Virus record (IMG/VR): IMGVR_UViG_3300042549_005369
Location: 1-64,000 of that record
DNA from: a virus
Strand: one strand, 5' to 3'
Length of the DNA: 64,000 nt
Below the pieces are notes generated by a model. That model had not been told where the DNA came from. It ran no database searches and saw only the letters and a list, made by a program, of their open reading frames with translations. This document shows positions 24,698-56,684 of this stretch, in pieces. A program made the position numbers and the translations under genes. Every line of letters begins with the position of its first letter. Positions within the stretch are counted from its first letter, which is position 1.

Positions 24698-24964
24698 ATG
24701 CCGAAATTAGAATCATTTTTCGACGACGGAACTTGCCAAGACCCCGAGTGGGTAGGTATGCCAGAGTTCAAATCACAGGATCAAACCTCACATCGCAAGA
24801 TTATTGTGCACTTCAGAAACGACGAGGACGTAGAAAAGTTCGCTGAGTTGATGGGGCAAAAAATCACACGCAAGCAACCTAGCCTATGGTATCCATACAT
24901 GCCTCCCCGCAGAACTACGCACCTACTCTACGTTGAAGACCCACTTGACGGATTTGAGATATGA
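24698..24964 (+). CDS. Conserved hypothetical protein
   Basis: 88 residues: 'DPEWVGMPEFKSQDQTSHRK', 'IIVHFRNDEDVEKFAELMGQ', 'SLWYP'. I recall this pattern (WxGMPEF...IxVxFxxxEDxxxFxxLxGQ) from phage proteins encoded near ParB-like or glycosyltransferase genes; no activity is known. ATGA overlap with the glycosyltransferase at 24961, so the two probably act together. Leader CAACCAAACC. Confidence 0.65.
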   Translation: MPKLESFFDDGTCQDPEWVGMPEFKSQDQTSHRKIIVHFRNDEDVEKFAELMGQKITRKQPSLWYPYMPPRRTTHLLYVEDPLDGFEI

Positions 24965-30500: not shown

Positions 30501-33500
30501 ATTTCGTTCTTCATGCGCTTCTTCGCCGCAGTCTGAGCGGAGGAGAGTTGCGTCTCTGGATCAACAGGAGCATACCCAAGGTCTTTGGCGAGGTCGTCAC
30601 GCTTCTTGCGGAGTTCGCGTAATTTCACATCAGGATCGTCTTTCTTCGTTCCTGTGCGTTTCATCACTCCACGGGCTTCCAAGTCGTCGATCTGGCGTTG
30701 AACCAACTCCAAGGACTTGGCTGCGCGGAGAGCCTTGGCTTCCTCGCTCTTGTTCATCGCTCGGGTTTCCCCGTAGCGGGTGAATAGCTGTGCCACGTCT
30801 TCACGGGTGAGGCTAGGGTAGAACTCCAACAAATCCCTGTATACGCGGTCGAGGACTTCCGTGTCTCTGGCACCGTCATAAACGTGGGCTTTGGCGAGGT
30901 CGTAGACCATCTGGTTTGTGAGTTCCTCGGAGCCGTCAATGGACTCCATCACCATTTGAGGCGTAGGCATTTCCGTCCCAGAAACATCCTCCATCATTGG
31001 GCGGAGGTATTCGTCAACGTCACTGCGCAGGCGATCCGCCACTGCGGCGTAGGCGGCACCGAACATCACGCGCACGCGGTCAGCGAATTGCGCTGTGCTC
31101 ATGATGGGGTTAGCGACAAGGACTTCAGCAAGCACAATCACACGGTCACGCCACGTTGGATCATTGGCAGAGTCCATCTGGTAACGAGTGTTATCCTCGA
31201 TAGGCGGAAGACCCAAACGCTCACGAGCTTCTTTGGCTGCTTTGCGAACTTTGTCCACGAGCACTCGGCGGGTGACTTCCTGCACTTTGGTGGAACCTTT
31301 GGCCTTGGCGGCGTCACGCTCGGCGCGGAGTGCGTCGATCATGGCCTGTTGCTCGGCTGCGCGGTCAACACCAAGTTGCTGCGCTTCCTTCAATGCGTCA
31401 ATTTCTTCCTGCATCTTGGCCATGCGCTCCGCGAACTGGGCAACTGCTTTGGCTTCGGCTTCGGGGAGTGCATCTACTGCGGCCTTGCCTTCGGCCACTC
31501 GCACGGAGTTGTAGTTCGTGAGAGCGCGGGAGTAGAGAGTGCCTTGGGAGAAGTCCTCTTTGAGTGCGTATTTCCAAGCGTTGAGTGCGCGACCTGCGGC
31601 AGTGCGGGATCGAGCAATCTGGTTAAGCATGGTCTGGTAACGTGCGGATGCCGCATTGACGAGGTTCTGTTTTTCCTCGGCCATATTGCGGTTGCCCGAA
31701 GAGATTGCGGTTTGTAATTCCCGCAATGTGCGGTCAAGAACCATCTTGCGCTTCAACCCCTCATGAGTGAATCGAGCTACTTCTAGGGCGGTAAGAGGGC
31801 GATCTGGATTCGCTGACATCATCAGTTTATTCAACTCGGCCTCACCAGTTCCCGCAGGCTCGTTTGTCACGCGATCCCACAAATCTCCAAACGTCTGCGC
31901 TGCCTGATTCCACGCAGCAGTGTCATACCCATAGAGGGCGGCTTCCATGTCTGCCCGTGCGCGTTGCACGGAATACGGGATAGGCTCATCCTCAGGAGTG
32001 TTGAACTCGCGTTGCGTGAGTGCGGGCGGCGGTGGGAGCGGGTTCTCTAGGTGGAAACGTGCCACACCTGCGAGATCGTCCATTGTCTCGATAGGGGTGT
32101 CGGATGCAGGGTCGATGGCAGGAGGTAAGGGGGAACCATCCTCGGTCGTCATCTGGGTTCCCGATGGGGTGACAATGGTCGATGGGGCAACCATGCGGGC
32201 GGCGATCTTGTCGAAGATGGCGCGGACTTCGGAGGAAATTTCTACGTCAATCGGGCTACCCGTAATTGTCTTGTAGGTTTCCCGCATCCACTTCGCCATT
32301 TTATCGAAGATGGCTTGGAGTTCGGCAAATGGGGCTTTGCCATCCGCAAGATAGCGTTCCCAACCACGGGCGAATTTCTCGCTCGCTTTGCGTTCCATCA
32401 TTTTGCGGTTGTTGGGGTTCGCGTCCCCTGCCCATGTTTTGACCGTGGCGACTTCCTCGTCGGTGAGGCCTGTGTAACCCGTCATTTCAAAGGCGTGCGC
32501 CATTTCATGCACGGCAGTAGTGAAGTCGGGATTCAGTAGTCCTTTAAGCAGGACTTTACCATCAGCAAGGAGCTTGGCGAAACCTTTGGCACCTTGGGGA
32601 CGGCGTTGAAACCGAAGGTCGTCCCTACGCTCGTTGAACAAGGGAGTTTGACCCTCAGTAGGGCCGAACATGTCTGGGACAATAATGCCTGCGTCACCTG
32701 TAAGTCGTTGCGCTTGGCGTTCCGCGAGTTGGTCACGCTGTTTCTGTGCCGCTGCCTCTTCACCCAACTGGTCTTGGGTGACGGACTCTAGGGCGAAGTC
32801 CTCGGCCGCGCCGTAGATAGCTTCATCTTCGATTCCCTCGTCGGGGGTGAATTCGTAGTTGTCAAAGTAATCATCGACGTAGATGAACTCAGCTTCGGCT
32901 TTGACCGTGGGACTCCCGAAGCGTTTACCGCCGTCGAAGTCGATGCGAATTAGCTGCCCATTTCGGTTACGAATGATCTTATCGACGATCACTTCTTCCC
33001 CGTCAATAAATAGAACATCGCCCTCACTGAGTTTTTCCAGAATGATCTTGTATTCACCATCGCTTGTAGCACGAGCGAAGTCTTCGTCTTGGCTCAAGGA
33101 TTCGGCTTCAGCTTTCTCTGTCGCTGCGGTTTTGCGGGCTGATGCAATCTCCGTTGCTATCGCGTTGAATAGGTCTTGTGGTTGGTCGCCTTTGATCGCG
33201 TTGGCTTTGTAGAGGTCGTCTGCAAGTTCTTCAGGGGTAGAGGCATTTGGGTTTTGAGTGTAAAACGAAGTGAACTGTGGGTTTTTTCGGAGGACGCCTG
33301 ATCCATTCCACTGCGATTTATTCGCTTTATACCACTTGGTGCCGTATATTCTTTTCGCAGCCGACATGCTCATAACCCCGCCACCATCTATGAGACTGAT
33401 GAACAGTGGGGATTCCTCAAATAGCTGCACGGCTCGGCTCTTGGTGCGTGTCCTGAACTTTTGGATTTCCACGTCACCCTCAATACGCTCCCAGTTTTCA

Positions 33501-36500
33501 CCTTTCAAATCTGAACGGTAGGTGGCACGCACCCCGTCCACTTCAATAACAGCAGTGTCGGATACATCATTGACTTCGATCACTTTACCAATTCTCGATG
33601 CCCCTCTGGTAAGCACGTCAGCCCTCGTTCTTCCTTGTGGAAGGCCTTCAGTGTCAGGTTTGGTAAACGAGAACGAGGCATCCCCATCTGACAGGGTAAA
33701 TCGGGTTTCATCGACGCGAGTCAACGTCCACTCTTTACCCTTGGGGTCAACCAAAGTTTTGGGGTCTTTGGCAGTCCAGCCTTTAGGCAAGGACTTCTCA
33801 TTCAGTGAGGCAATTTCTTCACCGCTAAACGTATCAATTTTCTGTTTGGTGGCAGGCTCGGGTGTGGGTGTCGAGGTAGGCTCGGGTGTGGGTGTCGAGG
33901 TAGGCTCGGGTGTGGGTGTCGGGGTAGGCTCGGGCGTAGGCGCAGGTTTGCGACGATCAATGATCGCCCATCCTCTAGCATACGGATCGCCTGTGACCTC
34001 AGCCCACTCTCTCACTTCTATATTCGGCCCACCGCGAGGAGACGGGAGGAATGGCTTGGCTTTTTCCCCCTCGGTGAGCAAAGACTTGCGACGTTCAAGG
34101 GTCATTACGCTCTCTGGGACATAGGTAATCCCGTTCGCCCGTAGCTCGGTTCCTTTGAGCTTGGAGATTGCCAGTGCGCGTTTTTCTATGGGGGTGAGTT
34201 TAACTTCTGGTGCGGTGGGTGCCTCAACTGGTGCGGGCGCGGGTGTGGGTGTAGACTCGGTCGTGGCTGCTGGGGCGGGGTCGGTTGGTCTGCGGAGCCA
34301 CTCGACAGGAACTGCCATTTGAGTCCTGCCAGTCCACACCATTGCTTTGTCGCCCTCATACCCACGGAAGGACACCTCGGCATCCTCGTTGGTAAACGTG
34401 GATCGCATGATGAGCTTGTCATCAACCGAGAACCTTACCGCTGGAGTATAGATCATTGTCTCACCATCAGCTTGTAGGGCAAATCCGTTTTTGGAATACC
34501 AGTCGATGAGTTGGGCTTTGTTCATCCCATCGGTGCCGAATGGTTCTGCAACGATTCTGATGGGGACTCCTGCATCATCAGCGAGGGAAACAATTTCCTT
34601 CAGAGCTTGCGTTGCCCGTCCTTTGCCTCTGGATTCTTTCGGGGTTTTGAGTCCTGTCAGTGTGACGAAATCACCGAAAGAATCAATTTCCACGGTAACA
34701 CCGTTGTCGAGTTCAATCTCTTTCTCGAAGTCTGGGTCAAGGGGCACTCCCAATGTCTCGCGGATGTCTTCCGCAGCACGTCTAGCTTTAGAGCTTGTGC
34801 CTTTGAGTTTGATGGGTGCGGGCGTAGGCGCGGGCGTAAGCTCAGCATCCGTTTTAGGCAGTCCGAGTTCTTCGGCTTGCTTGACAAGTTTTATCAGAGC
34901 AGGTTCTGTCTCAACCGCGATTGCGTCAACAAGACGTTGATCTGCACCGCGCTGATCTTTGGGGTATTCCTTCTCAAGTTTTGATTTTTCCGCCTTTGTT
35001 TTGGCCTTTGAATTGCGGTAATTCCAAATTCCAAGTTTCTGCACCAAGTCGCCTTTGAGTTTTTGAATTTGAAATAATTTTCTTTCGGCGGTTTCCAGTG
35101 AACGAACTTTGATTGGAACTGCTCCAGTTAGACGTGCGTCAAACACCTCTGCTTGTGGGTGTCCTGCAACGATGTCAGAGAATATCTCTCCAGCGTTTAC
35201 TTGCTCCCCGCGCTGCTTGGCTTCGTAAGCTGCGATTTGCGCTTCTAGTTTGAGGTTTGGTTTCCCTTGCTCACGGCGCAGCGACGCAACGTCTTTTGCT
35301 ATTTCATACCCTTCTTCCGTCATTCCCCCATCTGGAGAGCCCACGGGTTGTCCCGTAACCAATTCTCCAACCCCACTACCGTCCGCAGCACTCTGCGGCT
35401 GATACACATACAGCCCGTTCTGCTTGACGTATCCCTCTGGCAGTGTGATGCCGTAGGTGTCCACGGCTTCGGCGGAGACGGGAAGGCTCGACTTTACGCC
35501 GAACGCTACTTCTTGAGCGTGATCGTCTCGATTTACTTTAAGCATTCCGGGGCTACCTGCTTGCGGATTCCCCGCGTCGCGGATTTGATCTATTTCTAGT
35601 TGCTCCTGTGGGGTTCGGAGTCTCTTAGGTTTGTTCTGTGGGAGGGCGGGAAGTCCTGCCTCCGCCGCAGCGATGCTCAAATCCTCATGCTCTGAAATGG
35701 CATTGTCCCACGCAGTATCAGTTTGCGTGTAGTTGTTTATTCTCCGATCTGGGTTGCGCTCCGCTCTGCCTGTTTTCATGGCAGCGTATTCCTCGGGGGT
35801 CATCTGCTCGGGTGTGGGCGTAGGTGTCGGAGTCTCCACAGCGGGAGTCACCGCACGCGCACGTAGCCTATCACCTACTGGCGTAGTTCCCACACGACCC
35901 TGCGTGAGTGCGCCACCGACGCGACGACGTGGTGCGGGGGCGGGGGCAGGCTCGGGCGCGGGCGTAGGCGCGGGCTCAGGTGTTGGGGGTAGTTCTGCCT
36001 CCTGTTCTCCCTCAAACTGCGTCAGGAAATCTGGGTAGGCATCGGCGAGTTTCGCCATTTCTTCCAAGTAAACTCCGCTGCCAGCTTCGTCGAGGGTGTA
36101 GCGGTTCATGTTATTGAACGCTTTCTCATACTGCGTTTTGAACTCGTCGTAGGTGAGGCGTGCAGGCTCGGGCGTAGGCTCGGGCGTTACCGTCCCTGTT
36201 CCAGCGGGCGGCGTTTCTGCTTGCGGGACTCCCGTGGGCGTGCTTTCGACAGGGCGATTGCCACTGCCTGCTTCTGCGGTCTGCCCTCCTTGACCAGTTG
36301 GCTGATATTGCGGCTGATTGTTTGGTTGGACGTTCCCTGTTGTAGTGGCATCGGTAGTAGGTGTTGGTTGTTGAGTAGGCGCGGCTTTTTCCCGTGCAAG
36401 CAATACTTGCTCAGCGGTCAGCCCCATTGCGCGTGCAATGCTTTCCGCAACCTCAGCTTGTTCGTCCGAGAGGTCGAACGTAGCTTTGAGTTCTTCGCGG

Positions 36501-39500
36501 GAAAGGGTGGGGGCTTGAGCAGGTGCGGGTGTGGCTTGAGCAGGTGCGGGTGTGGCTTGAGCAGGTGCGGGTGCAGCAGGCGCAGCGGGTGTGGCTTGAG
36601 CAGGTGCGGGTGCAGCAGGCGCAGCGGGTGTGGCTTGAGCAGGTGCGGGTGTGGCTTGAGCAGCGGGCGTAGGCGTTACCGCAGGGTTAAACTGCCCTTT
36701 AAGTATCTGATCCTGCACATCTTTTGAAAACTCACTGAGCGGAACTCCCGCCATCTCTGGTGTGGTTTTAAGCACGTCGATGGCTTGTGCTATATCCGAT
36801 TCCGTTACCCCAGAAATACCATCAAAGTCAAAAGCAAAAGCTCTTACGTTGCCGTCGGCTCCCACAACAAGCCCTAAGTTCTTCAGCGATTGGTCGGTCT
36901 CAACTCGAAGTGCTTTCTCGTCCCCCGCTAATGGGTTTTGACTTTTGAGTTTTTCAAAAAGTAGATTGTCGTTTTTGGTTCTATTTTCGATGTTAGCACC
37001 TTCAATGCCAACAGGTTTTTGTTTTATGAGAACTACATTACCACCGTCTGGGTCTTGAATAATAACTTCGTATTCGGGGAGGGTTGCAAATTTTTGTCCC
37101 CCGTTTTGTAGGACTTCCATTTGCTTTTTAACGTCGTTAAAATACTCATCAGTCGGGTTAAACGTAATTTTGATAAACTCACCTGTTGATTTGCTGCGGA
37201 AAACATCAGACACGTTCGCCCTCACAAATTCCAAATCAGTATATCCCGAAAGTTTTTGGGCAACATCAACAGCCTTTTGGACGTCTTTCGGGTCTGGGTT
37301 TTTTACCCCTATTTCTATTTTTGGTTTAATAGCCAAAAGTTCTCCAATGAGTGACATCCGCTCTTCTTGGCTTACTGCGGAAAGACCAGTTGGCTGATAT
37401 TGCGGCTGATTGTCTGGTTGCTGCGATTTTTTAAGGTAGTCGGTTCTCCATGCGGTGAAAGCTAAATCTTCTACCGCTGCTCCACCCTTAGTGGTAGCGG
37501 TAGTCCAACTTGGAATGCCTAACCCAATTTTTAAGAGGCCAATGATAGCTGGATCAACATTCAGCTCTTGGGCAATTTGTGCCGTGGTTTTTCGTTCGGC
37601 TGCTAACGCTTCCACCTGTGACTTAGTTGCGTCGGGGACGCTTTGCATTACGCTCTCAACATCCGCCTGCATCCAAGCTGGTGCAGCGGGTGCGGGTGCA
37701 GCGGGTGCGGTTTCAGCAGGTGCTTGTGCCAACGTGCGGTTCACCCGCAGACGCTCTTGGCGAGTCTGTTCGTTGAGCTCTGCGGCGTAAGCTGCCTGTT
37801 CTTCTGGCGTCCTGCCATACTGGTCAGTTCCCGCATAGCTTTCGGGAATTTCGGAGAAAATCTGGACGTCGGCTTCGCTGCTTCCACCTTGTGCGGAAAA
37901 CTCGGCAAGGACGCCTTGGCGGAACGCCTCGGTTTCCATTGACCCATCAGGGTCAACCGATTGGGCAAGGCGTTGTCCAAGGACACTCGCAGACTCTGGA
38001 TCAACCCCCGCAGATGCTAAAATCCGCTCTGCCATTTTTGCCCGACCCTTGTTCTCAACTTTTTGAATTTCAGGGATTGCAGCTTCGACAGGTGCGGGTG
38101 CGGCTTGTGCGGGTGTGGCTTGTGCGGGTGTGGCTTGTGCGGGTGTGGCTTGTGCGGCTTGTGCTGCCTGTGGGGCAGTTCCCCCCATGGGAATTGGTTT
38201 GCCGTCAAGTCCAATGACGCCAGCTTGACCTTGCAATGGCTCAAAGCCAGTTATGGGAGTGTTCATTGCTGCCTGTGCTGCCTGTGGGGCAGTTTGCTGC
38301 ACCGCAGGGGTGAGCAGTGGGGCACTTTTTTCTATGCCCCTAGAAGCAACTCCTACCCCGCCACCGAGTGCGCCTCCTACTTTTGCGACCTCCCACGTAT
38401 CGCTCCATAAGGTGCCGAGGTCGGTGTCGGGGTTAGCAAGGAGGAACGAACTAGTGAACGCGTCGATAGCTTCCTCGGAAGCCTCACCAAGAGTGTCAAA
38501 CATCACTTGCTTGACGAATTTGCGTGTCGCCGTCCATACTTCTTGGCGAGTCCCTGCCGACATGACATCGCGCAGGGTGATGGATGCTGCGGGTTTTGCC
38601 ACAGACGCAACACGTTCTACGCCTCCAGCACCGAGACCTTGGAAGATTCCTGTTATTACTGCGGTATTGAGTCCAGCTTTTACTGCTTTGGATCGGGCTT
38701 CGTCGTCGGTAGCCCCCCGCGCTCTCTGGTCGGCGTAAGTCATGCCTGCGCTCTGCGCACCTGCGGTAGCTAGCGTTGTCGTAAGCCCAATGGCTCCTGC
38801 GGCACGACCGCCTGTTGCAACTAAGGACAAACCTCCTGTAAGCTGTGAAGCAACGATTTGTGCAGCCACGGATGGCAATTCTTGGACTATTGCCCCAGCG
38901 ATGCCTGTGTCCGTTTTGCCCTGCGATACTATGCCACCAGCTTCAGAACCTGCGGCAGCAGCTTGTGCCATGCTCTCGCTGCCAGCAAGCCCGCCAATAC
39001 CAAGTCCTGTTGTGGCGATTTTGTTGAAGCTAAGAACGGCATCGGTTGCCAAGCCTCTTGCCCACTTGCCAGCGGCACCTTGTTTGTCGATCACTTGCGT
39101 TTCGTATTCGCGCAAAAACTCAGGGGTGTTGAGCACCGCAGCGGAATAACCTTTTTGCTCGGCGTATTTGGAAGGTGTTGGGATTTCTCCCATTGTGAGG
39201 AAAGCACCTACTGCTGTTGAATCATCAATGCCCCATGACGATTGTTTACGGGTTGGGGAACTCAATACGCCCATTGCGGTTTCATACGCGAAAATCTTTT
39301 CTGCTGCGGTTTGATAGCGGTTCTCGCGAAGTCCTGCCTTGAACTCTTGCTTTGCGGCTTCTGACACCCCAGATTTGTCCAGCGTTTCCTGAACCTTTTG
39401 GTCATCGAAATAGTCGGTGGACATTGGGTTGAGGCGAATCCTACCATCGGAGAACAGGCGAACTTTTTCGTCCTTGTCCCATGCTTTTGTCATGCGCCAA

Positions 39501-40048
39501 AAGTCGTTCCATGCCCCGTTCATTTCCTCATCGGAAAGATTGTTGGCCTGTTGGAAGTCGTGGAAAACTTTCTGGACGGGTTGCGAGTCCGTCATCCATG
39601 TGTCTCGCAGCTTGCCGCCAAAGGTTTGTTCTAACGCGGCTCCTACCGTCACAAACTGCTCTTTGACTCCACCTTCCTTAGTGGTTGCCGCCATGAACGG
39701 CAACTCCCAATCACCCGATTCTTTGCGTCGGATGTCGTTGTATTTGCCAGTTGCAATGGCGGATGTGGCCAATGGATAAAGACCAGTTTGTTTGAGCGTT
39801 TCCGCAAGTTGTGGCCCTAGCGAGCGTTTAGGTGCCGTCGTAGGTTGAGCCACGGCGGCGGGTGCTGCCACAGGTCGAACCAGAGAAGAAACGGCTTTCA
39901 ATACCTCTGGATTGGTTTCTTCCTCAAAAAGAACTTCAGAGGGTTGAGCCACGGGGGCTGGTGCTGGTGCCGCCGTAGGTTGAACCTGTAAAGAAACGGC
40001 TTTCAACACTTCTGGATCGGTTTCTTCTTCTAGGGTAAATTCTTGCAT
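27524..40048 (-). CDS. Giant large polyvalent protein (4,174 aa), probably ejected with the DNA
   Basis: Modular. Residues 1-75: a duplicated [13 protein letters not shown] segment. About 330-450: Gly/Ala-rich, possibly membrane-interacting. About 520-1400: Pro/Ala-rich linkers around an inserted domain (876-1240) bounded by a 37-bp DNA repeat. About 1780-1865: GNAT acetyltransferase-like ('[20 protein letters not shown]'). About 2490-2590: zincin with HEMAH (H2514, E2515, H2518) and a downstream Glu helix. About 3050-3560: charged coiled coils with repeated 'DLDRRI...SPEISARR' units. About 3780-3960: hydrophobic segments. Large polyvalent proteins carry many enzyme domains that are delivered into the host with phage or plasmid DNA. 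With the 618- and 242-residue genes just upstream it resembles the internal virion set of podoviruses. Starts [10 protein letters not shown]; no sign of frameshift over 12.5 kb. Confidence 0.8.
36292..36328. repeat. 37-bp direct repeat in the giant gene, copy 1
   Basis: GACCAGTTGGCTGATATTGC and the next 17 bases match 37384-37420 with a single mismatch (36/37). The two copies encode NQPQYQPTG and lie exactly 1,092 bp (364 codons) apart, so an exchange between them keeps the frame. Confidence 0.95.
37384..37420. repeat. 37-bp direct repeat in the giant gene, copy 2
   Basis: Partner of 36292-36328. Together they bracket a lower-GC segment with a separate fold. Confidence 0.95.
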
Positions 40049-48502: not shown

Positions 48503-48841
48503 TTAAGGAATGTTAGGGGTGAACCATTTTACCTCGGGCATCCATTCAAGAAAGGGATTGCCTTCAAAGTCGCGGAGGCCGATGCGGACGTATCCAAGAG
48601 GCAGTGACCGAGTTTGCTCGGGAGTCATGGTGATGGTAATTGTCCCAGTGTCATCGTAGGCACTAGTAACGGTTGGAACCACGATAACGCGGTCGGCGCG
48701 AAGGTCTTTTATCTCGCACACGAATGGCCCAAGGTTGGTCAAGTCTAACGGGTCATCCGTAGCCGTAACAACGAACAGAAAGTCAAAAGACCATCTGGCA
48801 CCTCGGAAAATAGGAACATCTTGTGGCTCGCCCGGAGTCAT
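48503..48841 (-). CDS. Small virion or baseplate-like beta protein
   Basis: 112 residues: 'IFRGARWSFDFLFVVTATDD', 'FVCEIKDLRADRVIVVPTVT', 'LPLGYVRIGLRDFEG'. This is the Ig/BppU-like beta fold of small phage structural proteins placed next to fibre genes. Its ATG directly follows a perfect 9-bp hairpin arm (48842-48879), so translation may be controlled. Confidence 0.55.
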   Translation of the reverse strand: MTPGEPQDVPIFRGARWSFDFLFVVTATDDPLDLTNLGPFVCEIKDLRADRVIVVPTVTSAYDDTGTITITMTPEQTRSLPLGYVRIGLRDFEGNPFLEWMPEVKWFTPNIP

Positions 48842-48892: not shown

Positions 48893-51115
48893 CTAAATTC
48901 CAAACCCTACGTTCATTTCCCACTGCGGTCGGTTCGGGAGCAATTCAGTGATGCCCCTTTTCAGTCCTTCCGTGAGAATTTTGTCTGCAAAGTTAAGGAA
49001 TTGAGCCTCACCAAACGGAACGCCCCATGCTTTTTCTGTGGTGATTTTCACAGGATCGACTGCATGGAGGTGGAAGTAAGCCATTTCCATGGGGAATTTT
49101 TCCCACACTCCGAACTTGCGAATCACGTCCATTGCTTTCTCGCGCTCGTAGACGTAGGGAGTGTGCGTTGAGAATACCTTCTGGTTTTTGATTCCCATCT
49201 CCGAAAGCATGGTCAGAACTCTCACGATGCCTACACGCCATGCGTTAGCTTGCGGGTCGGCACGTCGGCAGAAATCCTCGGGGATGTCTTTCAGATACAA
49301 GGTTTTTTCGCAGTCTTCCCATGTGGTAGGGCGGAGAAGCAGGATGTCGTCGTTCATCCACAGAACCTTTTTGGCGGTCTGCACACCCTTGGCAAGAGCT
49401 TCTTGGTAGGTGTATGCCCCAATGTATCGGACGCGTCCGCCCTCGATCAGCCACCCGGGTTTCTGCGTCCCCATAATGTAGATGGGGCATTCCTTGTCCT
49501 CGAAAAACGTGTCAATAGCCCGCAGGGAATACCGCAGTTCGTGCCACTTCTCGGCATCTGCTTTCCACGGGTAGACGATGGCACGTTCAAGATCAGGAGT
49601 ATCTTTGCCTAGCTGTGGGTTTGATACTTCTAGCTTGATCGCAGGGTGAATGCTGACTTTGTGCCACCGTTTCGGGACTGGCTCCCATTGGCCGTAGGAG
49701 TTGCCTCCTGTGTGCCAGATTTCGGGAGTCACTACGTATCCGTTATGTTTGCGCTCGCCAAGCCATGCTCCCCACCATCCAAAGGTAGAGTTGCTGATGA
49801 TGTGGTGATGGCAGGATGCCAATGTGCGGATGCCCTCAATCGGCTCTTGTGGGGGCATGACAGTCACGTTGGAGTAGTGGGCGAAAAAATCCGAACACCA
49901 GTCGGGATCATCTGATACCACAATGAAATGACAACCCACGACTCGCTCTGCCATCCACTTCATGCCGTTCACGAAGTAGTCAGGGGTGGTGACATTAAGG
50001 CGGCTATGCTTCAGGTAGTCGCCACGGCGGACTTGTATTCCGACAGGTGTTGTCCCTTCGGGGTTTGGCAGTTCCACAGACTCTAGCTCGAAGATTGAGG
50101 CAATCTCGTCTGCATGGTCGCCAAAACAGGCTTCCGCTTGAAACGGGCAGGCGATGCGGCACACTTCATCTTTCGAGCCGATGATTCGCGACTTGGCAAT
50201 ATCGAACAGCCCGCGATGCCCTTGACCAATTTTGTTCATCAGGAGTGGCTCATCCCGAGCAGGGGACTCAGCAAGTCCGAACACCCCAAGGCTGAACTCA
50301 CGTAGGCTGCTTGGCTTCCACGTCCAGCGGAGTGGCAGGTTGAGCGTGCGGGACAGGCTATACGCCGCTGCCCATTCAAACATCTGATTGCCGAGGCCAC
50401 AGTTTTTGACGAACTCTAGCTCGATGATCTTGTCGGACTTTGGCATTTTCCGTGGTGCTACGCTGTAACGCACAGAGTCGGACGGCGGTAGTTCGAGAAG
50501 CCCAAGACGCTTTACGAGATCGAGGTTGAAGCCCTTGTGATTCCCCCAAAGGTGGACGAACCACGATGGCTCAAAGTCGCGGCAGTAGCGATTCCAATGC
50601 GAAGACAATACTTCGGCCTTGACCTTGGATTTCACCGCGCAGGTGTTGAACCAGTGCTGCTCTTGGTATTTTTCGACGAACTCGGTGTTTCGCATCGTCG
50701 CAAGCAACTTCTTGGCGTTGGCTCTGTCGCAACTCCATACACCTGCGTTGAAATAATTCCATTCAGATGTCCCTGCGATTTCGCCGTAGTTCTTGTCCGA
50801 CCACTCGCGCCAGAAGCGATTGTGCATCGTGTGCCATCGGTCGGTGGCTACGCAGAATGCTTTGCGCATGGGGAACTCAGGGGTATCGGAACGAACGAAC
50901 ACGTCCGCGTCCACGTAGAGTATGACATCATTTTTCCCCTTGAGGAATTGTTCAAGCATGTCCATTTGGACGAGCTTTGGCGTTGGGTAGTCATGGGAAT
51001 TGTCCCAGACAGTCAGTGGGTAATTGTGGCGTTCGCACCACTGGTCGAGGGTGGCAGAACATTCAGCTATGATCGGGTCGTTTCCGAACCGTAGGGTATG
51101 GACTTCTAGTTGCAT
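48893..51115 (-). CDS. Three-domain glycosyltransferase (GT8-like + GT11 fucosyltransferase-like + third GT)
   Basis: 740 residues. Domain 1 (about 1-215): GT-A glycosyltransferase with DxD in ILYVDADVF (D69, D71) and 'EWNYFNAGVWSCDRANAKKL', GT8-like. Domain 2 (about 230-495): alpha-1,2-fucosyltransferase-like GT11, with GLGNQMFEWAAAYSLSR (about 237), VQVRRGDYL-type motif (IQVRRGDYLKHS, about 360) and SNSTFGWWGAWLGE (about 450). Domain 3 (about 500-740): a second GT-A type with WMNDDILLL (about 587). Such a fusion could build a short glycan step by step. It lies in the virion-gene region with a methyltransferase and another fused glycosyltransferase. Leader ATTACCACCACC. Confidence 0.8.
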   Translation of the reverse strand: MQLEVHTLRFGNDPIIAECSATLDQWCERHNYPLTVWDNSHDYPTPKLVQMDMLEQFLKGKNDVILYVDADVFVRSDTPEFPMRKAFCVATDRWHTMHNRFWREWSDKNYGEIAGTSEWNYFNAGVWSCDRANAKKLLATMRNTEFVEKYQEQHWFNTCAVKSKVKAEVLSSHWNRYCRDFEPSWFVHLWGNHKGFNLDLVKRLGLLELPPSDSVRYSVAPRKMPKSDKIIELEFVKNCGLGNQMFEWAAAYSLSRTLNLPLRWTWKPSSLREFSLGVFGLAESPARDEPLLMNKIGQGHRGLFDIAKSRIIGSKDEVCRIACPFQAEACFGDHADEIASIFELESVELPNPEGTTPVGIQVRRGDYLKHSRLNVTTPDYFVNGMKWMAERVVGCHFIVVSDDPDWCSDFFAHYSNVTVMPPQEPIEGIRTLASCHHHIISNSTFGWWGAWLGERKHNGYVVTPEIWHTGGNSYGQWEPVPKRWHKVSIHPAIKLEVSNPQLGKDTPDLERAIVYPWKADAEKWHELRYSLRAIDTFFEDKECPIYIMGTQKPGWLIEGGRVRYIGAYTYQEALAKGVQTAKKVLWMNDDILLLRPTTWEDCEKTLYLKDIPEDFCRRADPQANAWRVGIVRVLTMLSEMGIKNQKVFSTHTPYVYEREKAMDVIRKFGVWEKFPMEMAYFHLHAVDPVKITTEKAWGVPFGEAQFLNFADKILTEGLKRGITELLPNRPQWEMNVGFGI

Positions 51116-51132
51116 GGTGGTGGTAATGGTGA

Positions 51133-51705
51133 TTATTTGCGTCGAAAAACGGCGAACCCACGGAATGTTTTTTCGCTGTTACGGTCAATGGCGTCCTCGG
51201 TGCATTTCCAGTCAGGGTGCTGTCTTAGCAGCTTCGCAGCATTCCAAGACCCCCAGCAGCCTTTCAGGCGTGGGAACGCTTGAGTGTCGTGCATACAGAT
51301 GACCTTGGCTCCCCATGCGAGGGCGCGGAGAGTATCGGCAAGCGCAGGCCAACGGTGATCGCCGTCGATGAACACGAAGTCGGCCGAAGAGATAGTTGTC
51401 AAATCCCATGATGGCGTTGTGTGCAGCGTAACCTTGTTGGGGTCATTGGCGAACGCTAAGACGCGGCGAAGTTCTGGGGTCGGAGTTAGCTCGATGACGT
51501 GCAAATGGTCGAGCTTACCTGCGTTGAGGGCCTCAATCAATGCGCAGGTCGTGCGTCCTTTCCATGGGCCAATTTCCACGGCTACGCGGCTGCCCTTCCA
51601 GTCGGAGATGGCAGCATCATAAAGCATGTAAATGTGGCGGTCGTCCATCTGCATCCAGTCTGATTGGACAAGTGGGTATTTCTGTAAGTCAAATGTGGGT
51701 GTCAT
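51133..51705 (-). CDS. Class I SAM-dependent methyltransferase
   Basis: 190 residues. 'DDRHIYMLYDAAISDWKGSR', SAM motif VAVEIGPWKGRTT (E44-G46), 'LDHLHVIELTP', 'ADFVFIDGDHRWPALADTLR' (motif with D for SAM/metal). This is the Methyltransf_24-like type often acting on sugars or glycolipids. Its closest relative in the window is the C-terminal domain of the next gene upstream. The leader is a run of ACCAACC units. Confidence 0.85.
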   Translation of the reverse strand: MTPTFDLQKYPLVQSDWMQMDDRHIYMLYDAAISDWKGSRVAVEIGPWKGRTTCALIEALNAGKLDHLHVIELTPTPELRRVLAFANDPNKVTLHTTPSWDLTTISSADFVFIDGDHRWPALADTLRALAWGAKVICMHDTQAFPRLKGCWGSWNAAKLLRQHPDWKCTEDAIDRNSEKTFRGFAVFRRK

Positions 51706-51731
51706 ATTGGTGGTTGGTGGTTGGTGGTTGG

Positions 51732-53780
51732 TTAATCCTCAATGGCTCTGGATACGGCGAATCCTCTCCAAGTATGCTCTGACGGTCTGTCCGCGCAATC
51801 CTCTTTCCAAGTTCGGCCTTTTGCTATTTTCATGGCTTGCGCTGCGTGGTGACTTCCCCAGCATCCTTTCATTCTGGGGAATGCACTAGTGTCGTGCATA
51901 CAAATGACCTTGGCACCCCAAGCTACCGCCCGAAGAGTGTCGCTGACTGCCCACCAATCGTGATTCCCGTCAATGAAAACAAAGTCGGCTCTGGTGATTG
52001 TAGTGTTGCACGCTGGAGTGGTGTGAATGGTTATTTTTGTTTGATCTACCGCCATTTTTAGGACATCCAAAAGTTCTTTTTTGATGTCGATTTCTACGAT
52101 GTGTAGGTGATCCAGTTTTCCCATGTTGAGTGCTTCGATTAAAGCCGTTGTGCTACGCCCCTTAAAACTTCCTATCTCCACAGCAACCCTGCTGCCTTCC
52201 CAATCAGAGATTGCTTCTTGGTGCAGCATGTAGATGTGCCGATCATCCATTGACCATTCTTTGTCCCCCGAATGCGGGTATTTGCTTAAATCAAAAGTAA
52301 CAATATCTTCGTTTTCCATAATTCTTGGTTTCCATTTTCTTTTGTGCTCGGGATACCAAGTGCCAGAATACAGGTGTATTCCGTATTGATAGTCGTGCTT
52401 TAATGCTCCTGACATAAATGCCTTTCGCGTCTTTTTCGCTGAACTGGCGAGGTAAACCCCAGTGTCCAATCTAAGAATGCCATTATACTGCCTGCCGATG
52501 CTTGGTAGTGTTGTGCACGAGGAGTAATCACATACGGTATTCAACGCCCGTTGAACTGCTTTCGGCCCTGTGGTAGCTATCACATCGCAATCTTTCCTGT
52601 TTGATATGTCACCGATATGGTCACGTATCGCTTGGGCGGTGCGGCTTGCCCTCTTGGCCATAAAGATAGCGTTGATCGACCTACTTCCTGCCATCTCGTC
52701 TGAGTAGCAAAAGTCTGTTACATGTTGGAAAATACCCCAACAATTTTTGTATGGCCTAATGTCTAAGTCCGTGTAGACACCACCTTCGTTCGCCATAATC
52801 TCTAACCGAAGTAGGTCGGCTCGCATTATCACCGTAAGTGACGTATCTTTCACGTTTTCGCTAAGGTACGGGCAGTTAGCGACTGCTGCTTCATCCCACA
52901 ATTTGAACTCAAAATCTGGGTGTAATTCTACCCATTCCTGCATTATCCTTTCGCACTCAATAGGCATTCGGCTTTGACCGATCCAAATGAAATGAATTGT
53001 TTTATTGTGTCCCTCTTCTTCGTTGTTCATATTACCAATTTCTTCTGAGTTTGCATGACTGACTTCTTCGGAACCCGCCGTGGTGTTTTCTTCTGGCGAG
53101 ACATTGCCAATTTCCTCGGGGCTTTCATCGGGAAATCGCTCATCCAACCATGCGATTAGCTCGGGGGTAAAACCCCTGTCGCACCAGTTTACAAAAATCT
53201 TTTCTGCCGATGGGGTGTTGCGGAACTCGTTGTAGTATTGTGCTTCTACCCCGAAACGCCGTGGATGATTTCGCTTTGACAGAATCCAAGACTCGAATGG
53301 GAACTTGCCCGCCATGTTCGGCCAATCGGCAAAGCTCTCGTCGATCATGCTTTTGTCGAACCAATACGGGCCGTGTGGCTTGGAGTAATCCCAAGGGGTG
53401 TAACCTTCTTTTTCAAGTCGAACTCGGATTTCTTCGAGTTTTTTGCCCCAGCTAGTCCAAATCCTGCCCCAAGACTTTCTTGCGGGCGTAGCCATTAGTT
53501 GCTCGGCTGTTTGGTCTTGGATCAATACGCAGTCATCATACCACCAAAAGAACCCGTCTGGGTAGGTGTCTGCCGCTAGTTTCAATGCGGACTTCAGTTT
53601 CCCCTGCGTTTGTTTAAGCCAAGTCCCCTGATACCAGTCAGGCTTTTTTGGGCCAACAAGGACGACTTCATACTCGCCTTGGAAGTGCTCCGCAAAGCCC
53701 CTGAGTGCGTATCTCAGTTCTTTTCCGTTTTTGAATTTTCCGCCACATGGGCTGTATGGTATGCAAATGGTGTGTTTCAT
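51732..53780 (-). CDS. Fused protein: GT-A domain + GT32 (OCH1-like) glycosyltransferase + methyltransferase
   Basis: 682 residues. Domain 1 (about 1-215): GT-A-like, with FFWWYDDC near residue 82, similar in outline to domain 3 of the gene at 48893. An acidic low-complexity linker (Glu/Ser/Asn, about 223-262) follows. Domain 2 (about 265-470): GT32 type, 'IHFIWIGQSRMPIECERIMQ' and 'LLRLEIMANEGGVYTDLDIR' with the DxD. Domain 3 (about 490-680): SAM methyltransferase, a paralogue of the stand-alone gene at 51133. Glycosyl transfer plus methylation in one chain suggests capping of a glycan by a methyl group. Encodes the upstream half of the glycan group. Leader GACGACCAC. Confidence 0.8.
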   Translation of the reverse strand: MKHTICIPYSPCGGKFKNGKELRYALRGFAEHFQGEYEVVLVGPKKPDWYQGTWLKQTQGKLKSALKLAADTYPDGFFWWYDDCVLIQDQTAEQLMATPARKSWGRIWTSWGKKLEEIRVRLEKEGYTPWDYSKPHGPYWFDKSMIDESFADWPNMAGKFPFESWILSKRNHPRRFGVEAQYYNEFRNTPSAEKIFVNWCDRGFTPELIAWLDERFPDESPEEIGNVSPEENTTAGSEEVSHANSEEIGNMNNEEEGHNKTIHFIWIGQSRMPIECERIMQEWVELHPDFEFKLWDEAAVANCPYLSENVKDTSLTVIMRADLLRLEIMANEGGVYTDLDIRPYKNCWGIFQHVTDFCYSDEMAGSRSINAIFMAKRASRTAQAIRDHIGDISNRKDCDVIATTGPKAVQRALNTVCDYSSCTTLPSIGRQYNGILRLDTGVYLASSAKKTRKAFMSGALKHDYQYGIHLYSGTWYPEHKRKWKPRIMENEDIVTFDLSKYPHSGDKEWSMDDRHIYMLHQEAISDWEGSRVAVEIGSFKGRSTTALIEALNMGKLDHLHIVEIDIKKELLDVLKMAVDQTKITIHTTPACNTTITRADFVFIDGNHDWWAVSDTLRAVAWGAKVICMHDTSAFPRMKGCWGSHHAAQAMKIAKGRTWKEDCADRPSEHTWRGFAVSRAIED

Positions 53781-53789
53781 GTGGTCGTT

Positions 53790-54137
53790 TTACGTCGTGA
53801 CTTCCGCGTTCAAAACATCTGGATCAATAGGAGTGTAAATTCCTGTTGGGTCGCATGGGTCGCCGTTCTTAATCGCAATGGTAAACCCGCCACCATCCCA
53901 CATCTCCCAACGGTTCAATGCTGGTTTCCAGTCAATGTTGATGAAATCACCAGACGACGCGACGTAGTTACCGAATGCGTTCAGTGTTGCCCCACCCGAA
54001 TATATTCCTGCGTTGCGCTCCCAGAAAACACTGACGGTCGTAGGTTTGTCGCAACTGCTTCCAATTCCGCTGCTGCCACTTCCCGAAAGGAAAGACGACG
54101 ACCCGCTGGACGAGACTTTTGAACTGCCATAGCTCAT
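53790..54137 (-). CDS. Ser/Gly-rich small virion protein
   Basis: 115 residues. The first 30 are Ser/Gly-rich (SSKVSSSGSSSFLSGSGSSG), then a beta-rich domain ('ATLNAFGNYVASSGDFINID', 'NRWEMWDGGGFTIAIKNGD'). The Ser-rich start might be a glycosylation target, given the enzymes encoded next to it. ATGA overlap with the Ser-Ser-Ala repeat protein. Confidence 0.5.
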   Translation of the reverse strand: MSYGSSKVSSSGSSSFLSGSGSSGIGSSCDKPTTVSVFWERNAGIYSGGATLNAFGNYVASSGDFINIDWKPALNRWEMWDGGGFTIAIKNGDPCDPTGIYTPIDPDVLNAEVTT

Positions 54138-55396
54138 TCAGATACCCCCTTGTCTCGGAGAGCCTCGATGATTTGTTCGCGGGTCATTCTTGGGTTGAGG
54201 CGACATTCGTTGTCCACGAAGTCGTCGTAGGTAGCGTATTGCGACCTGATACCCGCAAAGCCTCGACGAACGCCCTTCAGCATGACACTCGTTTTCTGCA
54301 TCCGTTTCTTCGCGGAATACCTTGAGGACAACAACAGAGAGTCCTGCTCAACGGTTGCGTTGCATGTCCCGATGTCGGGTGAAGCAAACGCACGGAGTGA
54401 ATTGGGTTCGCAGGAGAATACCACGATAGGGTCGATCTCAATTTTTGTCTTGCCTCGTTCGATTTGAAAGTCTTGGAAGTCGAAGAACAAAACCTCGGTA
54501 GCCTCCATGGCATACCATTTGCGGTATCCGCCTTCAGGCGACGGGTGAATAGCTGTATCCTTAGATGACCCAGATGCGGCAGAGGATGCTGAGGATGCGG
54601 CAGAGGACGCGGAGGATGCGGCTGAAGAAGCCGAAGAAGCCGAAGAAGCCGAAGAAGCCGAGGAGGCCGAGGAGGCCGAGGATGCAGACGAAGCTGAGGA
54701 GGCCGAGGAGGCCGAGGATGCCGAGGACTCCGAAGACGCTTCTGCTTCGGGGATAAACGCAACGAACCAATACAGGTTGCCCACATGCGTTTGCAATACT
54801 GGGTCATTACGTTTGACATTTCCTATTTTTACCGCGTAGCCACAGCGATCACCTTCCCCTGAATCAGAACCACGAGAAAGGTTTGAGTCAAGTCTTGGTA
54901 TTGCTTTGAGAGTTGGTTTGTCTGGCCCTTCGATTGTAAGTTTTACAGGTTCTGCGGTGCTTTCGTTTAGTTCGACTACCGCATACACGTCACCCCACCA
55001 GTCAAGTTGCAGCCATTTGTCGTCTTCGGTAAAGACTGCGGCTTCGTCCATGTCGGTGATTTTTACACCCTCGATAGGTTCTTGCGAGGCTAGTGAATTT
55101 ACATCTTCAAGTAGGGCTCCGCTTGTGTCATAGATAAATTTTTTCTCGAAAACAATGGTCGTGACGTACCACTCTAACCATCCTTGGGTGATTCGTGCCC
55201 CACCATTTCCGTGATCTAGCTTAAATGCGTCGTTCCATGGGGTAAGTTGTGGGCTGGTGCTTCCTGACTGCATCGGCGCATTTATCCCCATTTCCACAGG
55301 TGGCCGTGGGCGTAGGGACTCGCTGCCCTTTCTGCGCAAGTCTAAAAACGCCTGCGCTTCCGTGGGGGTAAAGTCTCTTAAAATTTTACCCTCCAT
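54134..55396 (-). CDS. Virion-associated protein with a long Ser-Ser-Ala repeat
   Basis: 420 residues from ATG 55396, where GGAGG overlaps the preceding coding end; a start 8 codons upstream is also possible. N-terminal beta-rich region (about 1-210) with 'WLEWYVTTIVFEKKFIYDTS', then about 58 residues of SSA/ASS repeats (about 217-275), then 'GGYRKWYAMEATEVLFFDFQ' and a C-terminal helical end ('MTREQIIEALRDKGVSE'). Likely structural. The Ser tract is an obvious O-glycan acceptor or flexible spacer. Lies between the glycan enzymes and the capsid genes. Confidence 0.55.
   Translation of the reverse strand: MEGKILRDFTPTEAQAFLDLRRKGSESLRPRPPVEMGINAPMQSGSTSPQLTPWNDAFKLDHGNGGARITQGWLEWYVTTIVFEKKFIYDTSGALLEDVNSLASQEPIEGVKITDMDEAAVFTEDDKWLQLDWWGDVYAVVELNESTAEPVKLTIEGPDKPTLKAIPRLDSNLSRGSDSGEGDRCGYAVKIGNVKRNDPVLQTHVGNLYWFVAFIPEAEASSESSASSASSASSASSASSASSASSASSASSASSASSAASSASSAASSASSAASGSSKDTAIHPSPEGGYRKWYAMEATEVLFFDFQDFQIERGKTKIEIDPIVVFSCEPNSLRAFASPDIGTCNATVEQDSLLLSSRYSAKKRMQKTSVMLKGVRRGFAGIRSQYATYDDFVDNECRLNPRMTREQIIEALRDKGVSE
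54573..54747. repeat. 9-bp degenerate repeat encoding (Ser-Ser-Ala)n
   Basis: Degenerate units such as GAGGCCGAG, GAAGCCGAA and GAGGATGCG repeat in frame for about 175 bp. Third-position variation shows the repeat is old enough to have drifted yet is kept at the protein level. Confidence 0.9.
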
Positions 55397-56684
55397 ACAA
55401 ACCTGAGATGTTAATTTCAACCACGGTCACTTCATAGAGATTCAAAGGTAGCTCGCGCACCTCGTATCCTATGGTGGCTGTGGTAAGTCCTATGAAAGTA
55501 GAGTATCCCGGCGTTGCTGGGTAACTAGAAGTGTAGACTCTCTCCCGTGTTGGTGTTGGGGTTGTTCCGTTCTCCGTAACGGTAATTTCCTCGTGAATGC
55601 TGGCGGGTAGTTGTTGCTGATTGGCGACCGCTGCCGTGTTGTTACCCTCTAAACTGGCTTTATACCACGCATATACGACTGCCATAGTCTCACGAACAGG
55701 TGCGGGGATTGCCGTAAGCGGATACGCGTCTTTAATGCTGTCGGGATCATCCGTGATGAATCGACGAATTGTGGCGGCGTATGGCCCCGGTCTTGGGTCT
55801 ACTAACTTCCACTTGAAATAAAAATTCTCGGAATACGACTCAAGTGCGCTGGTAGAATCGGCCCATGCCCACACCCATACAAGGTCGATGGACTCAAGTT
55901 TGCTTGGAAAAGGGTGGTCTCGGTAATCTGGTAGTGGAAGTTTTTCGTAGGGATAGTCGGGGTCTGACCCCTCTGCTCCAGTGATTAGTTCTCGGGTGAT
56001 TCGGACATCATAAAATCGGTTCCCCTGTTTAATCTCGACTGTCTTACCCGCCTCTTGAGTTGGTGGGGTTGGGTAAATCTCCGCAGGTATGATCTCGCGG
56101 ATAACTCTTACGTTTCTTTGGAAAGTGGTGTCCCACGCGATCTCCACGGTGATTGGTTCAATGAATCGCCGTTGGACGATGATGTATTGGCTGGTGAGTT
56201 CCTCGGGGGCGTCTATTACAGTGTCATCAGCAAAACCGTATTTCACAAACCGAGTATCGGGGGTTCCGACAACTGGATAGGTAAACTCTCCATTCACCGT
56301 TGGGTTGGCCGCTGCGGCCTCCGCGTCACTACGTTCGTAGTAAAGGTGTCGTTGGACGAGGTAGGTTCGGATAAGCTGTTCGCCACTGTTTAACGTCCAG
56401 TTGTAGGCATCTTGGTTGATGCGGTCAGACGCAAAATACCACCGTGACCATTTATCTACCGATTGCGGAGAGACATGGACGAGTCGATGGTTTGGGTATC
56501 TGATGCGATCCTCAAAGGGGTCGCCAAACTTCCAGTTCTGGTTTTGAGGTAAATCGCCATTACGCTCCACGAAGAACATCAAGTCCCTGCGCTCGGGCGT
56601 AGGCCACAGCAACACGGGGTCAACCCGTGGTGCTGGTGTGCGCGGTTTTGGTTTGTTCCACTCGGTGTCTTCGGGGCGTGGCAT
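55386..56684 (-). CDS. Hypothetical virion protein
   Basis: 432 residues, Pro/Tyr/Trp-rich and mostly beta ('LVHVSPQSVDKWSRWYFASD', 'TSQYIIVQRRFIEPITVEIA'). No enzyme motif or transmembrane helix. Its place two genes after the capsid, and size, suggest a tail or decoration component. Family not recognised. Confidence 0.55.
   Translation of the reverse strand: MPRPEDTEWNKPKPRTPAPRVDPVLLWPTPERRDLMFFVERNGDLPQNQNWKFGDPFEDRIRYPNHRLVHVSPQSVDKWSRWYFASDRINQDAYNWTLNSGEQLIRTYLVQRHLYYERSDAEAAAANPTVNGEFTYPVVGTPDTRFVKYGFADDTVIDAPEELTSQYIIVQRRFIEPITVEIAWDTTFQRNVRVIREIIPAEIYPTPPTQEAGKTVEIKQGNRFYDVRITRELITGAEGSDPDYPYEKLPLPDYRDHPFPSKLESIDLVWVWAWADSTSALESYSENFYFKWKLVDPRPGPYAATIRRFITDDPDSIKDAYPLTAIPAPVRETMAVVYAWYKASLEGNNTAAVANQQQLPASIHEEITVTENGTTPTPTRERVYTSSYPATPGYSTFIGLTTATIGYEVRELPLNLYEVTVVEINISGLYGG

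What the first reader, a model, noticed from the sequence alone, without database searches (positions are those of the whole stretch)
48893..53780. Glycan-building group of fused enzymes inside the virion gene region
Seen: three adjacent minus-strand genes encode at least five glycosyltransferase domains (GT8-like, GT11-like, two GT-A types, GT32-like) and two SAM methyltransferase domains. Known: single glycosyltransferases occur in phages, and GT11 enzymes transfer fucose. Inference: the three-domain chain and the GT+GT32+methyltransferase chain together could build and cap a multi-sugar glycan, on the virion (Ser-rich proteins are encoded next door) or on the host envelope. This combination in one late operon is the best candidate here for an undescribed system.
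Basis: partly seen in the sequence, partly recalled or inferred. Interest (0 to 1): 0.88.

Follow-up and report, generated by a model that had tools for sequence, protein, structure and literature searches.

The report
Phage genes sugar-coating their own virion
This uncultured phage carries a set of fused sugar-transferring and methylating enzymes right next to serine-rich particle proteins that they probably decorate, and related phages (most likely of Verrucomicrobiota bacteria) keep the serine-rich proteins while swapping the sugar enzymes, as if changing the coat.

Summary
In detail: three intact, co-directional late genes encode five glycan-transferase domains and two methyltransferases. 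I reassign them. A (51732-53780) is Stealth-like + GT32 + MT24. B (51133-51705) is MT24, 63% identical to A's. C (48893-51115) is GT8-like + GT11 + Stealth-like. The two unassigned "GT-A" domains resemble GlcNAc-1-phosphotransferase (profile E=5e-9), so at least one step is probably sugar-1-phosphate transfer.

Comparative anatomy supports a virion target. The two most serine-rich ORFs of the genome lie directly upstream. In two other phages homologues of that serine-rich protein (65% and 38% identical) keep a serine-rich linker of different sequence, and each is followed by a second serine-rich protein and a gene carrying A's Stealth-like domain; the later domains are swapped. Another relative keeps C (42%) but has other glycosyltransferases and an FkbM methyltransferase. 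Related modules sit behind tail genes in Akkermansiaceae prophages.

Best explanation: modular glycosylation, with methyl capping, of serine-rich virion proteins (0.65). It is not an undescribed kind: mycobacteriophage virion glycosylation, cyanophage glycan clusters and chlorovirus multidomain capsid transferases are precedents. New are the serine-rich/Stealth-like cassette and its domain shuffling. Acceptor, sugars, linkage and host are inferred.

The parts
51732..53780 (-). Gene A, 682 aa: Stealth-like + GT32 + Methyltransf_24 fusion
53061..53780 (-). A domain 1: A-type Stealth-like sugar-phosphotransferase domain (YDD motif, HGP); 61% identical in L194, 52% in L191, 51% in prophage L177
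52281..53018 (-). A domain 2: GT32 (Gly_transf_sug) with R-A-D-x-x-R and D-L-D motifs; low GC (44%)
51732..52268 (-). A domain 3: class I SAM methyltransferase (Methyltransf_24; VEIGSFKGRST, FIDGNH, HDT)
51133..51705 (-). Gene B, 190 aa: stand-alone Methyltransf_24, 63% identical to A domain 3
48893..51115 (-). Gene C, 740 aa: GT8-like + GT11 + Stealth-like fusion; full-length orthologue (42%) in relative G001/L013
50432..51115 (-). C domain 1: GT8-like GT-A domain (DxD YVDADV, YxNxGVWxxDR, HxxGxxK invariant in family)
49601..50431 (-). C domain 2: GT11 (alpha-1,2-fucosyltransferase family; GLGNQMF, VRRGDY, SNSTFGWWGAWL)
48893..49600 (-). C domain 3: C-type Stealth-like domain (ELRYSLR, WMNDDI, HTP, C-terminal E)
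54134..55420 (-). Serine-rich virion-region protein (428 aa), proposed acceptor; homologues in L194 and L190 are also followed by a Stealth-like gene
54560..54745 (-). Serine-rich linker (26 Ser in 40 aa) between two conserved flanks; sequence not conserved, serine content conserved
53790..54137 (-). Second serine-rich protein (115 aa), start overlaps stop of the first by 4 nt; proposed second acceptor
48503..48841 (-). phrog_1084 (weakly BppU_N-like) protein between the glycan genes and the fibre; same PHROG in same relative place in prophage L177
46228..48498 (-). Collagen-like fibre/minor tail protein downstream of the glycan genes
55386..56684 (-). Conserved virion-region gene upstream (67% in L194, 27% in L188), anchors synteny

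Best explanation
A modular virion-glycosylation cassette. The serine-rich linkers of 54134-55420 and 53790-54137 are the acceptors. The A-type Stealth-like domain, the one enzyme domain that stays next to this kind of acceptor, most likely acts first, attaching a sugar (probably as sugar-1-phosphate) to serine or to a first sugar. GT32 (A) and GT8-like, GT11 and the second Stealth-like domain (C) then extend it, GT11 probably with fucose, and A's methyltransferase and B cap it with methyl groups, possibly two on one terminal sugar as in chlorovirus PBCV-1. Donors come from the host, since no sugar-nucleotide genes were seen among the genes scanned. The result is a glycosylated tail/neck or fibre-base part whose structure changes between related phages when domains are exchanged. 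Shown: domains, motifs, gene order, recurrence, serine conservation, domain swapping. Inferred: acceptor, order of action, sugars, phosphodiester, capping, effect on adsorption or recognition.
For: Domains and motifs. The top two serine-rich ORFs of 61 are the two genes directly upstream (26 and 16 Ser/40; 0.35% of background ORFs reach 14). L194, a close relative (three flanking genes 64-68%), has the same order: serine-rich protein (24/40), second serine-rich protein, A-type Stealth-like domain (61%), then unrelated domains instead of GT32-MT, B and C. L190 has the same three-gene cassette with Stealth-GT8-MT24 (36% to A over its length). Linker sequence differs (SSA, SSSP, SSE/SSG) and Ser codons are mixed, so serine content rather than a DNA repeat appears to be kept. 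In 13 phage/prophage loci the gene just upstream of the transferase ranks high in serine (mean normalised rank 0.15, P about 1e-5). Prophage L177: serine-rich tail protein, Stealth-GT8 fusion, phrog_1084, tail spike. C is kept with synteny in G001, and a Stealth gene plus GT8-MT24 in L188.
Against: No proteomics or glycan data. G001 carries C without a serine-rich neighbour (contig ends close by) and L191's neighbour is not serine-rich. L194 keeps the acceptor but lacks B and C, so C's link to this acceptor is weaker than A's. Some GT8-Stealth genes lie in Akkermansiaceae chromosomes away from phage genes, so the module can serve other glycans too. GT8 assignment is below Pfam's cut-off; no Stealth CR1/CR3 match. 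A's model is poor (pLDDT 44). The 13 loci are not fully independent and ORFs were called mechanically.
Confidence: 0.65

Rival explanations
1. The enzymes act on the host: they alter a surface polysaccharide late in infection (or in lysogens) to block superinfection or release the phage from receptor-bearing debris.
For: GT8-Stealth two-domain relatives occur in Akkermansiaceae chromosomes without phage neighbours; GT11/GT32 pairs occur near each other in Bacteroidota genomes; characterised Stealth proteins include capsule polymerases (PMC5974469).
Against: Position inside the virion operon with overlapping or closely spaced genes; conserved pairing with a serine-rich virion-region protein in three phages; A, B and C showed no obvious membrane segments on reading (not tested with a predictor).
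Confidence: 0.22
2. The enzymes extend a glycan on hypermodified phage DNA, continuing a TET/TAGT-type pathway.
For: The phage encodes a TAGT-family glycosyltransferase (24961-25797, PF20691 E=4e-45), a family linked to DNA base glycosylation (PMC13390438).
Against: TAGT is in the early plus-strand block and is missing at the syntenic place in G001 (helicase homologue ends at 24127, next homologue starts at 24163), which keeps C. The GT module travels with tail genes in many prophages. The DNA methylase found in the window (8635-9900) is of the N4/N6 type and no C5-methylase or TET enzyme was identified among the genes scanned.
Confidence: 0.05
3. Remnant or neutral cargo: accreted transferase domains without a present role.
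For: Domains are shuffled and partly replaced between relatives; A's GT32 part has atypical GC (44% against 52.8% for late genes).
Against: All ORFs intact, catalytic motifs kept, C conserved at 42% over 738 aa next to core genes at 37-53%.
Confidence: 0.05

Closest known systems
Virion glycosylation of mycobacteriophages (Corndog/cluster O; Freeman et al. 2023, cited in PMC11600133; gene order in PMC4351075)
   Same: O-methyltransferase plus several GTs inside the virion operon; reported to modify capsid and tail tube proteins.
   Different: Single-domain enzymes located between portal and capsid protease. Sequence relation to A, B and C not tested (Corndog record not held).
Chlorovirus PBCV-1 capsid glycan machinery: A064R (RhaT-RhaT-O-MT, 638 aa), A111/114R (GalT-XylT-FucT, 860 aa), A061L (second methyltransferase) (PMC9614988, PMC7826918)
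   Same: Two three-domain transferases, one ending in a methyltransferase and one with a fucosyltransferase domain, plus a stand-alone methyltransferase, for a virion glycan.
   Different: Eukaryotic virus, N-glycan on the major capsid protein, different enzyme families; only a weak profile link of the GT8-like domain to A064R D1 (E=0.007).
Serine-rich repeat glycoprotein (SRRP) loci of Gram-positive bacteria (e.g. PMC5207161, PMC6973325)
   Same: Serine-rich repeat protein with its transferases encoded beside it.
   Different: Phage virion-region protein; no GtfA/GtfB-type match in A, B or C; a Stealth-like domain sits in the first position.
Stealth family hexose-1-phosphate transferases (human GNPTAB, CpsY, bacterial capsule polymerases)
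   Same: CR2 region with ELRYSLRS and NDD, H-x-P, CR4-like end; fold match.
   Different: Short domain without CR1/CR3 matches, fused to other transferases in phages.
Phage glycan gene clusters: cyanophage S-SCSM1 and Microbacterium phage Rasputia
   Same: GT11, several GTs and methyltransferases (S-SCSM1); a gene weakly similar to C's Stealth-like domain, three GTs, acetyl- and methyltransferase (Rasputia).
   Different: Separate genes, S-SCSM1 with its own GDP-fucose synthesis.

Membership tests
GT11 (PF01531) | Full-domain profile match with GxGNQMF, (H)xRRxDY and NSSFxWWGAWL motifs | tested here: met
   81.7 bits against cut-off 23.9; motifs aligned with six phage GT11 proteins, H of HxRRxD is Q here
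GT32 (PF04488, Gly_transf_sug) | Profile above cut-off and DXD | tested here: met
   38.4 bits against 23; R-A-D-x-x-R...GGVYTDLD aligned with seven relatives
GT8 (PF01501) | Profile above curated cut-off | tested here: inconclusive
   18.6 bits against 24.3; only 1 of 9 family members matches at all; DxD and HxxGxxK invariant. Called GT8-like only
Methyltransf_24 (PF13578) | Profile above cut-off with SAM motif I and D-G-x-H | tested here: met
   37.4 and 32.6 bits against 26.3; VEIGxxKGRxT, FIDGxH in both
Stealth proteins (PF11380 and CR1, CR3, CR4) | CR2 and CR4 present | tested here: inconclusive
   CR2 in 11 of 14 members (best 6.6e-7) and CR4 in 4 of 14 (best 0.016), the scores shown are below the curated cut-off; profile vs GNPTAB 5e-9 and CpsY 1.7e-5; Foldseek 9bgg 2e-8
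Stealth proteins (PF11380 and CR1, CR3, CR4) | CR1 and CR3 present | tested here: not met
   No member matches CR1 or CR3 at E<=0.1; hence 'Stealth-like', not a canonical member
Virion glycosylation system (mycobacteriophage type) | GT and O-methyltransferase genes inside the virion operon | tested here: met
   A, B, C lie co-directionally between virion-region genes
Virion glycosylation system (mycobacteriophage type) | Sugar found on virion proteins | not testable with these tools
   Needs mass spectrometry of virions
Serine-rich repeat glycoprotein (SRRP) locus | Serine-rich repeat protein encoded beside transferases | tested here: met
Serine-rich repeat glycoprotein (SRRP) locus | GtfA/GtfB initiating O-GlcNAc transferase | tested here: not met
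   No such Pfam or NCBIfam match in A, B or C; works like, not a member
TET/TAGT DNA hypermodification | C, A or B linked to TAGT in relatives | tested here: not met
   G001 keeps C and lacks TAGT at the syntenic site

The most novel reading that the evidence does not exclude
The A-type Stealth-like domain primes serine residues of a virion protein by transferring sugar-1-phosphate (phosphoglycosylation), giving phosphodiester-linked, methyl-capped glycans on a bacteriophage, with the rest of the glycan exchanged domain by domain between phages infecting different Verrucomicrobiota strains.
Probability: 0.25. Interest if true: 0.85.

Novelty: new variant of a known kind. Interest (0 to 1): 0.66.

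Why it matters
Which phage proteins are glycosylated, and by which enzymes, is known for very few phages. Here the likely acceptor and enzymes are encoded side by side and recur in at least three phages with the serine-rich acceptor kept and most of the enzyme domains exchanged, so acceptor-enzyme pairs can be expressed and tested directly. A Stealth-like phosphotransferase at the head of the pathway would put sugar-phosphate chemistry on phage particles, and the architecture resembles chlorovirus capsid-glycan enzymes, suggesting convergence between viruses of bacteria and of algae.

Tried and rejected
Nucleotide search in phages: no match. Peptide-pattern scans with A, C, the MT pair and the portal-like protein: nothing; relatives came only through the GT11, GT8 and serine-rich alignments. 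Phages-collection tblastn with the portal-like protein: no match. Structure of A: pLDDT 44, not interpreted. MT24 profile against PDB: no hit. L194's transferase against PDB sequences: no hit. The GT32 domain's phmmer matches to clostridial glucosyltransferases and SetA reflect the shared GT-A/DXD superfamily only. Corndog record and the Freeman 2023 paper are not held. Promoter and terminator scans did not exceed shuffles. Terminase search in Akkermansiaceae gave only weak hits, so host is not proven. Rejected: DNA modification as the main role; DNA microsatellite as the cause of serine richness, because codons are mixed, although the window tract itself does show a 9-bp repeat.

Full report
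OBSERVATION. The window is positions 1-64000 of a 68,417-bp virus record. Three minus-strand ORFs, A (51732-53780, 682 aa), B (51133-51705, 190 aa) and C (48893-51115, 740 aa), are intact and co-directional with the virion-region genes, with gaps of 9, 26 and 17 nt. Pfam finds GT32 (2e-9) and Methyltransf_24 (1.6e-7) in A, Methyltransf_24 (5e-9) in B, and GT11 (7e-23) plus a sub-threshold GT8 match (0.0036) in C. B and A's methyltransferase are 63% identical.

THE TWO UNASSIGNED DOMAINS. A aa 1-240 and C aa 506-740 are homologous (23% identity, E=4e-6). An AlphaFold model of C (mean pLDDT 74.7; GT11 and C-terminal domains well predicted, GT8-like part poor) matched human GlcNAc-1-phosphotransferase best (9bgg, E=2.3e-8). 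A 14-member profile of this domain matches GNPTAB at 5e-9 and the exopolysaccharide phosphotransferase CpsY at 1.7e-5, with ELRYSLRS, NDD, H-x-P and a CR4-like end aligned. Pfam Stealth_CR2 hits 11 of 14 members and CR4 4 of 14; CR1 and CR3 hit none. I call it Stealth-like. The GT8-like domain keeps an invariant DxD, Y-x-N-x-G-V/I-W-x-x-D-R and H-x-x-G-x-x-K; its best solved relative, weakly (0.007), is the PBCV-1 A064R glycosyltransferase domain.

RELATIVES. G001 (IMGVR_UViG_3300028590_000028) shares primase (37%), PolA (53%), helicase (51%) and homologues of three late genes plus parts of the 4174-aa protein, and carries a full-length C orthologue (42%, same domain order) in the same place. 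Instead of A and B it has a GT2-like protein, a DUF6492 protein and an FkbM methyltransferase. L188 belongs to the same lineage (homologues of p55386, p42709 and the giant protein flank the site) and has a Stealth-like gene followed by a GT8-MT24 fusion. L194 (IMGVR_UViG_3300037189_003935) is the closest: three flanking genes are 64-68% identical, both serine-rich proteins are present, then comes a 635-aa protein whose Stealth-like domain is 61% identical to A's while the rest has no match to A, B or C. L190 has a serine-rich protein (homologous to 54134-55420 over both flanks), a second serine-rich protein, and a 770-aa Stealth-GT8-MT24 protein 36% identical to A. L191 has an 875-aa protein with Stealth, GT8 and MT24 domains and an intervening stretch that reads like a further methyltransferase (read by eye).

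HOST AND PROPHAGES. The best bacterial matches to C are in Verrucomicrobiota. The GT8/Stealth profile hits 14 of 260 genomes of the family of an Akkermansiaceae genome but only 5 of 289 across the phylum, four of them weak. In several loci the gene lies directly behind tail genes: L095/L180 (TIGR02675 tape measure), L097, L175/L176 (with a fused Sulfotransfer_3 domain) and L177. L177 has portal, major tail protein, tape measure, a serine-rich protein, a Stealth-GT8 fusion whose Stealth domain is 51% identical to A's, a DUF3431 gene, phrog_1084 and a tail spike. The window has the same relative order: serine-rich proteins, A-B-C, phrog_1084 (48503-48841), collagen-like fibre. A tree of the Stealth-like domain groups A's with L177 (100/100) and C's with G001 (97/98). 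Other copies (L098, L110, L171-L174) are in chromosomal surroundings. A Verrucomicrobiota host is likely but not proven; the terminase gave only weak hits there.

SERINE-RICH NEIGHBOURS. Of 61 ORFs the two richest in serine (26 and 16 Ser in 40 aa) are the two genes directly upstream of A; 0.35% of background ORFs reach 14. In 13 phage/prophage loci the gene upstream of the transferase has mean normalised serine rank 0.15 (P about 1e-5 by simulation; loci partly related). Homologous serine-rich proteins in the window, L194 and L190 keep their flanks and a serine-rich linker, but the linker is SSA-type, SSSP-type or SSE/SSG-type, with mixed serine codons. This is what selection for serine content would give. 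G001 and L191 are exceptions.

MECHANISM. The element constant beside this acceptor is the A-type Stealth-like domain in the next gene; the later transferase domains vary (GT32-MT24 + MT24 + C in the window; other domains in L194; GT8-MT24 in L190). The simplest reading is that this domain acts first or makes the link to the conserved acceptor, and that later domains decide the variable outer glycan. Methyltransferases at the ends fit capping. PBCV-1 offers a worked example: A064R adds two rhamnoses and one methyl, A061L adds the second methyl to the same sugar (PMC9614988). All of this is inference from anatomy.

ALTERNATIVES. Host-surface modification remains possible (0.22). DNA modification is unlikely: the TAGT gene is in the early block and missing at the syntenic site in G001 while C is kept.

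NOVELTY. Phage virion glycosylation with GT and methyltransferase genes in the virion operon is known (PMC4351075, PMC11600133, PMC12619734), as are GT11-containing phage clusters and a weakly Stealth-like gene beside GTs in phage Rasputia. New here, as far as I could find, are the serine-rich acceptor plus Stealth-like cassette, its multi-domain shuffling and its recurrence in phages linked to Verrucomicrobiota. The literature search was limited to an open-access library.

Noticed in passing
24961-25797 (+): TET-associated glycosyltransferase (PF20691, E=4e-45) in the early block with an N4/N6-type DNA methylase (8635-9900) but no TET enzyme or C5-methylase identified; suggests a separate DNA base glycosylation. 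Missing at the syntenic site in relative G001.
   Followed up: partly
27524-40048 (-): Giant 4174-aa late protein with a [11 protein letters not shown] metallopeptidase-like motif (by eye) and Pro/Ala-rich linkers; homologues in G001 and L188 at the same position after the tail genes. Looks like a large ejected/polyvalent protein.
   Followed up: no
51706-51735 and 51116-51135: Starts of B and C are preceded by CAACCACCAACCACCAACCACCAAT and CACCATTACCACCACC instead of a Shine-Dalgarno sequence; initiation may work differently in this phage.
   Followed up: no
L002:6358-7074 (66357-67073 of the record, beyond the window): A resolvase-like serine recombinase gene (by eye) upstream of the terminase in the late block.
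   Followed up: no
L175:7589-10390 and L176:8720-11104: Prophage versions of the module carry a Sulfotransfer_3 domain fused in front of GT8-Stealth, suggesting sulfated glycans in some phages.
   Followed up: partly
L002:8146-8418: The end of the record is a short tandem repeat that reads CSWSMPARGRCLLVVDA; may be a terminal repeat or an assembly end.
   Followed up: no
L188:7520-9031, L192:8157-9773, L097:6121-7764: Proteins with a Cys-rich CGCC(A/P)xP motif stand directly before the GT8/Stealth gene in three phages or prophages; a second candidate acceptor family.
   Followed up: partly
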